Of a stretch of DNA of 64,000 nt, positions 49,911 to 56,004 are shown piece by piece. The notes under the pieces were generated by a model. That model worked only from the letters and a program-made list of their open reading frames with translations, made no database searches and was not told the DNA's origin. The stretch covers positions 2,479,925 to 2,543,924 of the forward strand of contig OX638322.1 of NCBI GenBank assembly GCA_951812575.1, read 5' to 3'. The first letter of the stretch is position 1, and every line of letters starts with the position of its first letter. The stretch comes from Candidatus Binatia bacterium (lineage in GTDB: Bacteria; Desulfobacterota; Binatia; Bin18). Made by a program: the position numbers and the translations under genes.

Positions 49911-49935
49911 AGGCCGGCTTTGCCGGCCTTTTTTT
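49911..49935 (+). terminator. Rho-independent terminator
   Basis: An 8-bp perfect stem AGGCCGGC / GCCGGCCT with loop TTT followed by a T-run, 30 bp past the ABM gene stop. The DNA from here to 50040 becomes strikingly AT-rich and holds no gene. Confidence 0.92.
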
Positions 49936-50040
49936 GTTAATCAGTAATAAGAAATAGACACTACGTATTAATAGGGGTACAGAATTTATCTTTACATTAC
50001 AAGGACTTATATATATCTGGTTGTGAATCGATTTCTTAAT

Positions 50041-50880
50041 TCACAGGTTTTTCTCGTGCCAAGTAAGAAAACGTTTCATAGTAACATCATAGAGCGTACG
50101 AGGAGCGTCAACGGGTAAATCGAGTTGTTCCTTTACTCGTTTTGCTAAGTCCTTATGTGTCCAAGGATAGAGTTGATACTTGAGAATCAAGACAAACCCT
50201 CCTTCTTGTCGGACTTCCTCCATCCAATGGGCGGGAAACATTCTAACGACAAATACCGGACGAATACCTAAATACTTGCAGAGTCTGATTTTGATCGTCA
50301 GTTCGTCATGGTTCATATAACCGAGTGTGTTCTTAACTTCGATACCGTAGGCCACGCCATCCTTCTCGAAAATGAAATCTAGATCGTGACCAGACTCCTC
50401 CCATTCTTTGTCACGAAACCTATTAACGTTACGTCCCTTCATAACAAACTGAGATCGCGCGAATCCTTCGAGGATCATACTTTCGCCGTGGAGCCTAAGC
50501 GCAGCCCCGATATTCGGGTCGGCATATTCTTCCACAAGCGTGACAAGACGGGAGGCGCTCCGACGGTAATATCGGAAGGAGCGATGCCATAGTAGCATAA
50601 TCGACCCGCCTGTTTTGATCCCTCTTTTCTCTCGTCTTATAAGCCCCTGTGCCTCTAAGTCTCGTAATGCACGGTTCGTGATCCAATGGAAATAGCTTCC
50701 TTCATTCTGTACTTCGAGCTGCCGAGAGAAAAAAACCGCTTCTCGGTTCTTATCGAAGAAATCGCTAAGCCGTGCTCGTGCGTCACGTTCCTTTGGGTCG
50801 GGGGGACGATGTGGGTAATTGTCTGGATCAGGAGAGAAATCTTGGTAATCTGCCAATGAGATCGTATCCCAGCATATCAC
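50041..50880 (-). CDS. wHTH - PD-(D/E)XK nuclease-like protein, possibly fused to a VapC start
   Basis: Up to 279 residues. Residues about 35-90 look like a winged helix (HWITNRALRDLEAQGLIRR), followed by a basic helix. The nuclease signature is GHDLDFIF (Asp166/168) with YGIEVKNT (Glu181-x-Lys183). The GTG start overlaps the antitoxin stop (GTGA). The first six residues, MICWDT, match the start of VapC PIN toxins (WDTS), and homology to that family ends there. TTG at 50856 (…ADYQDFSPDPDNY) may be the native start. The gene is AT-rich relative to flanks, consistent with acquisition. Confidence 0.7.
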   Translation of the reverse strand: MICWDTISLADYQDFSPDPDNYPHRPPDPKERDARARLSDFFDKNREAVFFSRQLEVQNEGSYFHWITNRALRDLEAQGLIRREKRGIKTGGSIMLLWHRSFRYYRRSASRLVTLVEEYADPNIGAALRLHGESMILEGFARSQFVMKGRNVNRFRDKEWEESGHDLDFIFEKDGVAYGIEVKNTLGYMNHDELTIKIRLCKYLGIRPVFVVRMFPAHWMEEVRQEGGFVLILKYQLYPWTHKDLAKRVKEQLDLPVDAPRTLYDVTMKRFLTWHEKNL

Positions 50881-51164
50881 CGGCCTTCTTCCCGCTCACG
50901 CACGACCGTCGAACGGACGGCTGCCTGGGGGTCAGAAGGGCGTAGGAGATCCCAAAAGTCTTCCGGTAAGGGTTTTTCCCCACGCCTCACAAGACCGGCT
51001 TTCTCCATGTCTTGCAGGTGCTCGGGGAGAGATACTTGACTGGGGGGAAGCAAACGTGCGACCGGGCGACCGTACTCGGTGATGATCACTTCTTCGCCAG
51101 CTTTGACCTGACGCAAATACGCACTGAGCGACGTTTTGAGCTTGGATATGGTTGTGGTCTGCAT
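50877..51164 (-). CDS. Phd/YefM-family antitoxin
   Basis: A 95-residue antitoxin of the prevent-host-death family: MQTTTISKLKTSLSAYLRQV (DNA-binding N-terminus), GEEVIITEYGRPVARLLPP, then a disordered Pro/acidic tail that normally wraps the toxin. The longer upstream frame lacks a ribosome site, so ATG 51164 is used. In most genomes this gene type precedes a VapC/PIN, Doc or YoeB toxin; here the downstream gene encodes a PD-(D/E)XK-like nuclease. Confidence 0.88.
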   Translation of the reverse strand: MQTTTISKLKTSLSAYLRQVKAGEEVIITEYGRPVARLLPPSQVSLPEHLQDMEKAGLVRRGEKPLPEDFWDLLRPSDPQAAVRSTVVREREEGR

Positions 51165-51400
51165 TGTGATCTCTATTGGAAGTGTATTTTGGTCAGAATA
51201 AACTGATTCTTTTATCGTGCCAAGGGTGAGGCGCGGAAGAGGTTGGAAGCCCAACTGAGTAGAGATTCCCAGCCTCCCTAGACAGTCGCCGTCTACGTCA
51301 GATACGTAACCGGACGGAACAAGAAACATGACACTTTGGCACGATCCTGTTGCTTTCCTGCAACGAGAACGGATATCGAGCAATACACAAAGGAGGCTCT
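51165..51400. promoter_or_regulatory. Divergent intergenic region, no gene seen
   Basis: 236 bp between the leftward Phd gene and the rightward LLM gene. It should hold promoters for both. It contains AT-rich stretches (AAATACACTTCC, AGAATAAACTGATTC), but no clean palindrome or repeat stands out. Confidence 0.4.
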
Positions 51401-53298: not shown

Positions 53299-54468
53299 TT
53301 ACGCGTCCTCTGCACTCAGCGGCTGACGTGTCCGCGCGGTCTTTTTCCAGCGCTCTCGAACAATCCTGAGCGCCGCCTCAAACGGTGGACAGCGCGAGCG
53401 TTTGCTCCGCGAGAGCACCAGTTTGGTATTCTTCCGAATATGCTGGCTGACAAAGGCAAAGGATTTCTCGGTCCCAAGTCCCCGGATATCGGCCAGCGCG
53501 GCCAGGACCCCGCCGCCGTTTGAGACAAAATCGGGCACGACGCCAACCCCGCGCCGGGACAGGCGGTTCGCAATCGAGGGTCGAAACGGAATGTTTGCCG
53601 CCGGGACAACCAGTTTGGCCTGAATCCGGTCAACGTTCTTCGCATGAATGACATCCGGGCGGGCACCGGGAATGAGGATATCAACCGGCAGCGTAAAGAG
53701 CGCGCGCCGAGAGAGCAGTCTCCCACCTCGATAGTGCCGGACGGCCTCATCTCCATACTCTTGGCGCAGCTCCAAGAGCCGCTCGACATCCAGACCCTTC
53801 GGGTCATGACGGGTACCGGCCAGAGTTGAGACGGCCACCACCCGGGCTCCCGCCCGGATAAAGAAACGAGCCGCCCCGCCCCCAACCTTGCCGAACCCCT
53901 CAACGGCAACCGTAGCGCCTCGTATCGGCAGTTGAAAAGCCTTGGCCGCCACCAGGGCTGACTCAACCACGCCAAAGCCCGTCAATTGGTCTTCAAGCGG
54001 CAATCCCGCAAACTGTTTGATCCGCAACCCACTATAGCGCCGCTTCCCCGCCGCGTTCCGTAGCGGCAGAAAGTCGTCGTCCGACGTCCCCATGTCCGCG
54101 CCGGGATAATAGGTCCGCTTTTCATACAGGGGCTGAAGAACCTGGAGGAACGCGTCCAGAACCGCCTGGCGGTCCTGGGTTGCCGGGTCGTACCAGATGC
54201 CGGCTTTTGCGCCCCCGGCCGGAAATTCGAGCATCAGATATTTATACGTCATGGCCCGAGCCAGGCGGATCATCTCTTCAACCGACAGGTCGGGGAGCAT
54301 CCGCACGCCACCCGCACTCATGCCAAAAGCAGTGGTGTCAATGACAATCACCGCTCGCATCTGACTGGCCGGATCATAAAAGGAGAGAATCCGTTCCGGG
54401 CCTGTCGCGTCCTGATACCGGGAGAAGGGAAATGATGGCTGGGTACGCATAATGGCCCGAGGTTTCAT
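53299..54468 (-). CDS. Glu/Leu/Phe/Val dehydrogenase (leucine dehydrogenase-like)
   Basis: A 389-residue amino-acid dehydrogenase. RAMTYKYLMLEFPAGGAKAG is the substrate-binding segment with the catalytic Lys, GADMGTSDDDFLPL follows, and GATVAVEGFGKVGGGAARFF is the Rossmann motif. It is shorter than the neighbouring GDH, as are leucine/phenylalanine dehydrogenases. It deaminates a hydrophobic or acidic L-amino acid with NAD(P). Its start region is divergent from the GDH gene at 54583, and a shared control region of about 110 bp lies between. Confidence 0.9.
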   Translation of the reverse strand: MKPRAIMRTQPSFPFSRYQDATGPERILSFYDPASQMRAVIVIDTTAFGMSAGGVRMLPDLSVEEMIRLARAMTYKYLMLEFPAGGAKAGIWYDPATQDRQAVLDAFLQVLQPLYEKRTYYPGADMGTSDDDFLPLRNAAGKRRYSGLRIKQFAGLPLEDQLTGFGVVESALVAAKAFQLPIRGATVAVEGFGKVGGGAARFFIRAGARVVAVSTLAGTRHDPKGLDVERLLELRQEYGDEAVRHYRGGRLLSRRALFTLPVDILIPGARPDVIHAKNVDRIQAKLVVPAANIPFRPSIANRLSRRGVGVVPDFVSNGGGVLAALADIRGLGTEKSFAFVSQHIRKNTKLVLSRSKRSRCPPFEAALRIVRERWKKTARTRQPLSAEDA

Positions 54469-54582
54469 GCCTCCCCGTAGAGGTCAATGGGGCGAATAAA
54501 TATGACGCTAGGGTGCCCGAAACCCCTTTCCTGTTCTGATACAATAAACCAAGCCAATGAACATGGAGGGGAGGGGAGTCAC

Positions 54583-56004
54583 ATGCCAAAAACAAACGGA
54601 ACACTCGGTTTTTTTGAGAACGTGAACCGGAGTTTCGATAGAGCGGCCCGATTCCTGACCTACCCGGAGGGCCTGCTCAAGCAGGTACGCACCTGTAACA
54701 GCGTGTATACCGTGCATTTCCCCATCAAAACGCAGCACGGATACGAAGTGATCTCCGGCTGGCGGGTGCAGCACAGCCACCACAAAGCGCCGTGTAAGGG
54801 CGGCATTCGGTATGCGCCGGAGGTGAGTGAACATGAGGTCAAGGCGCTGGCCGCATTGATGACGTATAAATGCGCCCTGGTTGACGTCCCGTTCGGAGGT
54901 GCCAAGGGCGGGGTCCAGATCGATCCGAATCGCTATACGCCTGACGAAATAGAGCGGATCACGCGGCGCTATACGGCCGAACTGATCAAGAAGAATTTCA
55001 TTGGTCCCGGCGTTGATGTCCCGGCTCCCGACTATGGCACCGGCGGCCGTGAGATGGCCTGGATCTTTGATACCTATGCGTCGTTTTATCCCGGCCAGAT
55101 CGATGCCACGGCCTGTGTGACCGGAAAACCCATCACCCAAGGGGGAATACAGGGCCGGGTCGAGGCAACCGGGCGCGGGGTGTATTTCGGGCTGCGCGAA
55201 GCGTGTGAGCAGGCTGAAGACATGAAACGGATCGGCCTGAGTCCGGGCCTGGCGGACAAGACGGTCATTGTGCAGGGACTCGGCAATGTGGGCTACCACG
55301 CAGCAAAATTCTGCCGGGAGGGCGGTTGTCGGATTGTCGGTATCGCCGAGTATGAGGGCGGGATTTATAATCCTCGGGGGCTCGATGTGGACGCGGTCCT
55401 CGCCCACCGGCGAGAGACGCGCTCCATTCTCGATTTCCCGGGGGCGGAGAACATCCGGCCTTCTTCCGACACGCTGGAACGGGAGTGTGACATCCTGATC
55501 CCGGCCGCCCTCGAAAACCAGATTACCGAGGCGAATGCCCCCCGCATTCAGGCCAAAATTGTTGCCGAGGCCGCCAACGGCCCGGTCACCGCCCAGGCTG
55601 AGGACATCTTATCCGCCAGGGGCGTGTGGATCATTCCCGATGTGTATCTGAACGCCGGTGGGGTGACGGTCTCGTATTTTGAGTGGCTGAAGAATCTGTC
55701 GCATGTCAACCTGGGTCGCATGGGCAAGCGCTTTGAGCAATCCGCCTTTGACAGGATTCTCCACACGGTTGAACGCCTGACGGACACCTGGCTCCCGGAG
55801 GCGGAGCGCCGGTCAATCGTGCATGGTGCGGATGAAATCGATCTGGTGAATTCGGGGCTGGAGGAAACCATGATTACCGCCTATCATCAGATCTACGAAG
55901 AGTGGAAAGGGGATGCACGGATACCCGACCTGCGTACGGCCGCCTTTATCAGCGCGATGAAAAAAATTGCCGTATCGTATATGGAACTCGGCATTTTTCC
56001 CTAA
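54583..56004 (+). CDS. gdhA: Glutamate dehydrogenase
   Basis: A 473-residue glutamate dehydrogenase: [26 protein letters not shown], then [21 protein letters not shown] with the catalytic Lys, [21 protein letters not shown] and [21 protein letters not shown] for the NAD(P) fold. It interconverts glutamate and 2-oxoglutarate plus ammonium. GGAGGGGAGGGGAG precedes the ATG. It is followed closely by the DUF2007 gene. The close head-to-head paralogue suggests two roles, such as anabolic and catabolic. Confidence 0.94.

What the first reader, a model, noticed from the sequence alone, without database searches (positions are those of the whole stretch)
50041..51164. Phd antitoxin coupled to a PD-(D/E)XK nuclease whose first codons look like VapC
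The antitoxin stop overlaps the nuclease GTG (GTGA), as antitoxin and VapC genes normally do. The nuclease frame opens with MICWDT, matching the WDT(S) start of VapC toxins, then becomes an unrelated winged-helix nuclease with Asp168 and Glu181-x-Lys183. A TTG nine codons in could be the nuclease's own start. This looks like a toxin-antitoxin locus in which the toxin was replaced or overwritten after six codons by an AT-rich incoming gene. It could be a new Phd-nuclease toxin or defence pair, or a nuclease that borrows an antitoxin's promoter.
Basis: partly seen in the sequence, partly recalled or inferred. Interest (0 to 1): 0.62.

Follow-up and report, generated by a model that had tools for sequence, protein, structure and literature searches.

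The report
Nuclease gene overwrote a VapC toxin
In this bacterium an unclassified nuclease-like gene has taken the place of the toxin gene in an ordinary antitoxin-toxin pair, leaving only the toxin's first six codons; a sister genome keeps the original pair, so the swap can be seen directly.

Summary
A Phd antitoxin gene (51164-50877, minus) overlaps by GTGA a 279-codon frame (50880-50041) that opens MICWDT and then encodes a nuclease-like protein. The overwriting is visible directly. Sister genome G004, with the same flanking genes, carries phd (85% identical) plus an intact VapC. Its DNA matches the window up to GTGATATKCTGGGATACG (six codons), diverges, and matches again at the shared terminator. 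29 of 30 related VapC genes in the class lie directly behind a Phd relative, so VapC is ancestral. Nuclease homologues (Nostoc plasmid, genome G316) start exactly at the window's ninth codon (TTG), with no Phd found beside them. The nuclease is therefore an incoming gene using a toxin's promoter and start region. A new Phd-nuclease toxin pair is not supported: G006 has intact phd but a stop codon in its nuclease. Two unexpected points: the nuclease is far less diverged between window and G006 (dS 0.11) than phd (0.40), so it probably moved between phd loci; and it carries a conserved 3' element (TACCCCYATKAATACG, often after a hairpin) also found in Nostoc and two other genomes, so it looks like a promoterless mobile unit. 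How it moves and what it cuts are unknown.

The parts
51195..51223 (-). promoter-like TTGGCA-17-TATTCT upstream of phd
   Evidence: consensus scan, no more hits than in shuffles; nearly the same stretch is present in G006 and G004
50877..51164 (-). phd antitoxin gene, 95 aa
   Evidence: PF02604 E 5.8e-11; TIGR01552; orthologues 87% in G006, 85% in G004
50863..50880 (-). remnant of vapC: GTG + 5 codons (VICWDT), shared with intact vapC of G004
   Evidence: alignment with L008 and L036
50857..50862 (-). left junction: sequence ATCTCA, no longer vapC, 6 bases before the nuclease's own start
   Evidence: divergence point against G004
50041..50856 (-). nuclease gene from its own TTG start, 271 aa; N-terminal winged-helix-like region, then PD-(D/E)XK-type motif E125...D160...E173-x-K175 (numbered from TTG)
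   Evidence: homologues start here; motif residues invariant in four sequences including a 26% identical one; no Pfam/NCBIfam/PADLOC family
50023..50044 (-). hairpin GTGAATT-N8-GATTCAC around the stop codon
   Evidence: also in G006, G316 and the truncated copy in G586
49955..49979 (-). conserved 3' element TACCCCTATTAATACGTAGTGTCTA, about 60 bases after the stop
   Evidence: found 60-77 bases after the stop in G316, a Nostoc plasmid and G586, each time next to this nuclease
49931..49954 (-). right junction of the replacement, between the 3' element and the terminator
   Evidence: comparison with G004 and G006
49911..49929 (+). terminator hairpin shared with all sister genomes, also those without phd

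Best explanation
A Phd-VapC toxin-antitoxin module sat between a luciferase-like monooxygenase gene and an ABM monooxygenase gene. In the lineages of the window and G006 the vapC coding sequence, from codon 7 to just before the terminator, was replaced by a promoterless unit: a winged-helix/PD-(D/E)XK-type nuclease gene starting at its own TTG, plus a conserved 3' element. The nuclease is now transcribed from the phd promoter and translated either from vapC's GTG (adding MICWDTIS) or from its own TTG. Phd is left as an antitoxin without its cognate toxin. Shown: the replacement, its direction, its boundaries and the homologous start. Inferred: that the gene is a mobile nuclease using the operon's expression, not a toxin held by Phd. 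Also inferred: that it passed between phd loci by recombination after the host lineages had split.
For: Intact phd-vapC at the same site in G004 with junctions at codon 6/7 and at the terminator. 29 of 30 related VapC genes follow a Phd relative; the window's Phd nests among VapC-linked Phds. Nuclease homologues in Nostoc plasmid AP018330.1 (50%) and G316 (55%) align from codon 8-9 and start with TTG/GTG at that point; no Phd family among the neighbours tested. Nuclease dS window-G006 0.108 against 0.396 for phd and 0.175-0.69 for eight other flanking genes; four-fold sites 7/113 against 15/50, Fisher p 1e-4. Conserved 3' element in four lineages.
Against: No predicted or solved structure confirms the nuclease fold: both AlphaFold runs had pLDDT about 40 and no PDB relative was found. 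The catalytic call rests on motif conservation. The lower dS is close to that of one flanking gene (ECH, 0.175; p 0.06), so slow evolution is not fully excluded. Phd stays under selection (dN/dS about 0.16-0.19), which could mean it still has a role with the nuclease.
Confidence: 0.66

Rival explanations
1. New toxin-antitoxin pair: the nuclease is a toxin that took over VapC's place and is held by the same Phd.
For: Operon layout with the 4-base overlap kept; frame kept open through eight codons; phd under purifying selection. Phd antitoxins are known to pair with unrelated toxins (Fic/Doc, PIN, RelE, MazF-like; PMC2701414).
Against: Adjacency to Phd seen only at this one site. No Phd was found beside the Nostoc and G316 homologues. 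In G006 the nuclease has a TGA at codon 35 while phd is intact. The C-terminal part of Phd, expected to bind the toxin, still ends like VapC-linked Phds.
Confidence: 0.12
2. Homing-type element: the nuclease cuts vapC (or empty) alleles and is copied in by repair, so the unit spreads among phd-vapC loci by itself.
For: Same insertion point in two lineages although the nuclease is less diverged than phd and the flanks. In the Phd tree the G006 nuclease-linked Phd groups with the G004 VapC-linked Phd (94/86). Conserved 3' element with the gene across phyla. Single gene without promoter.
Against: No target site shown; homologues elsewhere were not seen to lie in vapC; vapC is gone, not interrupted; excess identity in the last 69 bases of phd is not significant (p 0.09).
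Confidence: 0.15
3. Single old replacement with slow evolution of the nuclease; no horizontal movement between the two sister lineages.
For: Identical left junction in window and G006; one flanking gene (ECH) has nearly as low dS.
Against: dS 0.108 against 0.396 in the neighbouring phd; G002, the closest relative by flanking genes, has no phd at all, and G004 has vapC.
Confidence: 0.2

Closest known systems
Phd-VapC (PHD-PIN) type II toxin-antitoxin modules
   Same: Phd gene, promoter region, 4-base overlap and the first six toxin codons are those of this module
   Different: the PIN toxin is gone; a larger, unrelated nuclease-like gene follows
PD-(D/E)XK nucleases with a winged helix (for example Mrr-type; comparison from general knowledge)
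   Same: E...D-x12-E-x-K motif, preceded by a helix-turn-helix-like region
   Different: no Pfam, NCBIfam, PADLOC or PDB relative at usable scores
Free-standing homing endonuclease genes (phage T4 seg/mob type; general knowledge, review PMC2988022 listed, not read)
   Same: single nuclease gene present at one site in some relatives and absent in others, apparently moving apart from its flanks
   Different: no cleavage site known; resident gene replaced, not only invaded; catalytic family differs from the GIY-YIG/HNH ones of T4

Membership tests
Type II toxin-antitoxin module | antitoxin of a known family | tested here: met
   PF02604 / TIGR01552
Type II toxin-antitoxin module | recurrent pairing of this antitoxin with this toxin family in other genomes | tested here: not met
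   no Phd neighbour found for the nuclease homologues in the Nostoc plasmid and G316; Phd relatives pair with VapC
Type II toxin-antitoxin module | toxicity relieved by the antitoxin | not testable with these tools
   needs expression
VapC (PIN) | PIN domain over about 130 residues | tested here: not met
   only six codons remain; no PIN match in the nuclease, while the G004 protein has one (PF01850, 3.7e-7)
PD-(D/E)XK nuclease | conserved E...D...E-x-K residues | tested here: met
   E125, D160, E173, K175 invariant in four sequences, one only 26% identical
PD-(D/E)XK nuclease | fold | tested here: inconclusive
   AlphaFold pLDDT about 40 with two sequences; no PDB hit
Homing endonuclease gene | presence/absence at one site and movement apart from the flanks | tested here: inconclusive
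   dS contrast and allele distribution agree, tract test weak
Homing endonuclease gene | cleaves the allele without the gene | not testable with these tools
   needs biochemistry

The most novel reading that the evidence does not exclude
An unnamed kind of small mobile element: a promoterless winged-helix/PD-(D/E)XK nuclease gene with a conserved 3' element of hairpin plus TACCCCYATKAATACG. It spreads across phyla and plasmids, displaces resident genes such as vapC inside operons, and is copied between allelic sites by its own nuclease.
Probability: 0.2. Interest if true: 0.75.

Novelty: new variant of a known kind. Interest (0 to 1): 0.52.

Why it matters
It is a toxin swap with several states of one chromosomal site preserved in one genus: empty (G001, G002, G003, G005), phd-vapC (G004), phd-nuclease (window), and phd with a broken nuclease (G006). 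That gives a direct case for how antitoxin operons take up new partner genes, a step usually only inferred. The unclassified nuclease with its conserved 3' element may be a small mobile unit worth testing, and the case shows that an antitoxin next to a nuclease must not be read as a new toxin pair without comparing alleles.

Tried and rejected
Structure prediction of the whole nuclease and of its C-terminal 172 residues: pLDDT about 40, so no fold search was made. PDB sequence search: nothing convincing. Phage records and viral contigs: no homologue. 3' element in viral contigs: 19 short matches, none next to this nuclease. Integron cassette: the short insert resembles a cassette in layout, but no attC-type core sites were seen by eye. 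Rfam: no credible match. G147 copy (L003) is a decayed relative without the 3' element. An empty site for G316 could not be found; its flanks are repeat-rich and lie near a transposase gene. A 25-base match to the 3' element in a Variovorax plasmid (E 0.3) lies in another gene and was taken as chance. A tract of co-transfer at the end of phd: suggestive, not significant.

Full report
What is there. On the minus strand a 95-aa Phd/YefM antitoxin gene (51164-50877) overlaps by GTGA a 279-codon frame (50880-50041). The antitoxin matches PF02604 and TIGR01552. It has no match of note in Pfam, NCBIfam or PADLOC. The genome is of the same genus as a Candidatus Binatia assembly (OY282457.1, which is G006).

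The replacement seen directly. Genome G004 of the same genus has the same flanking genes and a phd 85% identical, followed by an intact 143-aa VapC with a PIN domain. Aligned with it, the window continues without a break through the end of phd and the first 18 bases of the toxin gene. It then differs until the terminator hairpin before the ABM gene, where identity resumes. So vapC from codon 7 on was replaced. G006 has the same junctions as the window. Four other genomes of the genus, among them G002, the closest relative by these flanking genes, have the flanking genes adjacent with no phd at all.

Direction. Relatives of the G004 VapC occur in 53 of 145 genomes searched. Of 30 loci examined, 29 have a Phd relative directly upstream, mostly with the same 4-base overlap, up to 67% identical to the window's Phd outside the genus. 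In a tree the window's Phd is nested among VapC-linked Phds. VapC is the older partner.

Where the nuclease begins. Homologues were found on a Nostoc commune plasmid (50% identical, from query residue 9) and in genome G316 of the same phylum but outside the window's class (55%, from residue 8). G316 starts TTG GCG GAT, exactly where the window has TTG GCA GAT at codon 9, and Nostoc starts with GTG there. MICWDTIS is therefore not part of the family. No Phd was found beside these copies. More distant relatives (26% identical in G107, a similar gene in G023) extend the family; the G107 protein keeps E125, D160 and E173-x-K175 (numbered from the TTG), which supports a PD-(D/E)XK assignment by motif. 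The fold itself could not be modelled.

Did it move separately? Between window and G006 the nuclease has dS 0.108, against 0.396 for phd and 0.175-0.69 for eight other nearby genes. At four-fold sites it is 7/113 against 15/50 for phd (p 1e-4) and p 1e-6 against all pooled, but p 0.06 against the slowest neighbour. In the Phd tree the G006 Phd joins the VapC-linked G004 Phd (94/86) and not the window's. This suggests that the nuclease came into the two phd backgrounds separately or passed between them. A shared tract in the last 69 bases of phd is not significant.

A conserved 3' element. Around or after the stop lies a hairpin GTGAATT...(A/G)ATTCAC in the window, G006, G316 and a truncated copy in G586. 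Then, 60-77 bases after the stop, comes TACCCCYATKAATACG followed by a looser TAGT..CTA, also in the Nostoc plasmid; the rest of the 3' region is not conserved. The 16-base element occurs once in the window's genome and in none of 281 other relatives searched for an exact match; G006 carries it with one mismatch. The insert in the window thus begins six bases before the gene's start and ends soon after this element, without a promoter of its own. Its role (end of a mobile unit, RNA element or recognition site) is not known.

Function. In G006 the nuclease is cut by TGA at codon 35 while phd is open. Together with the lack of Phd beside other copies, this argues against a tight toxin-antitoxin pair. 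Phd antitoxins are known with Fic/Doc, PIN, RelE and MazF-like toxins (PMC2701414); no paper on a PD-(D/E)XK partner turned up in the searches made, which do not cover most subscription journals. The best reading is a nuclease gene that took over a toxin's slot and its expression signals, leaving Phd without its cognate toxin.

Noticed in passing
L036:5103-5105 (G006): The G006 nuclease has an in-frame TGA at codon 35 of the frame from GTG (CGA in the window), with phd intact.
   Followed up: yes
window 49955-49979: A conserved non-coding element TACCCCYATKAATACG follows the nuclease in four lineages, including a cyanobacterial plasmid.
   Followed up: partly
L095:1415-1640 (G586): A 5'-truncated copy of the nuclease with hairpin and 3' element near a radC-like reading frame.
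   Followed up: partly
L004:300-1346 and L004:1661-2035 (G107): A distant nuclease relative lies near a small protein with a weak RWD/E2-like match (Pfam E 0.007 and 0.027, below cut-off).
   Followed up: no
L089:4258-6435 (G316): The G316 nuclease lies between rearranged direct repeats that recur in that genome, near a DDE transposase gene.
   Followed up: partly
window 53299-56004: Two divergently placed Glu/Leu/Phe/Val dehydrogenase family genes next to each other.
   Followed up: no
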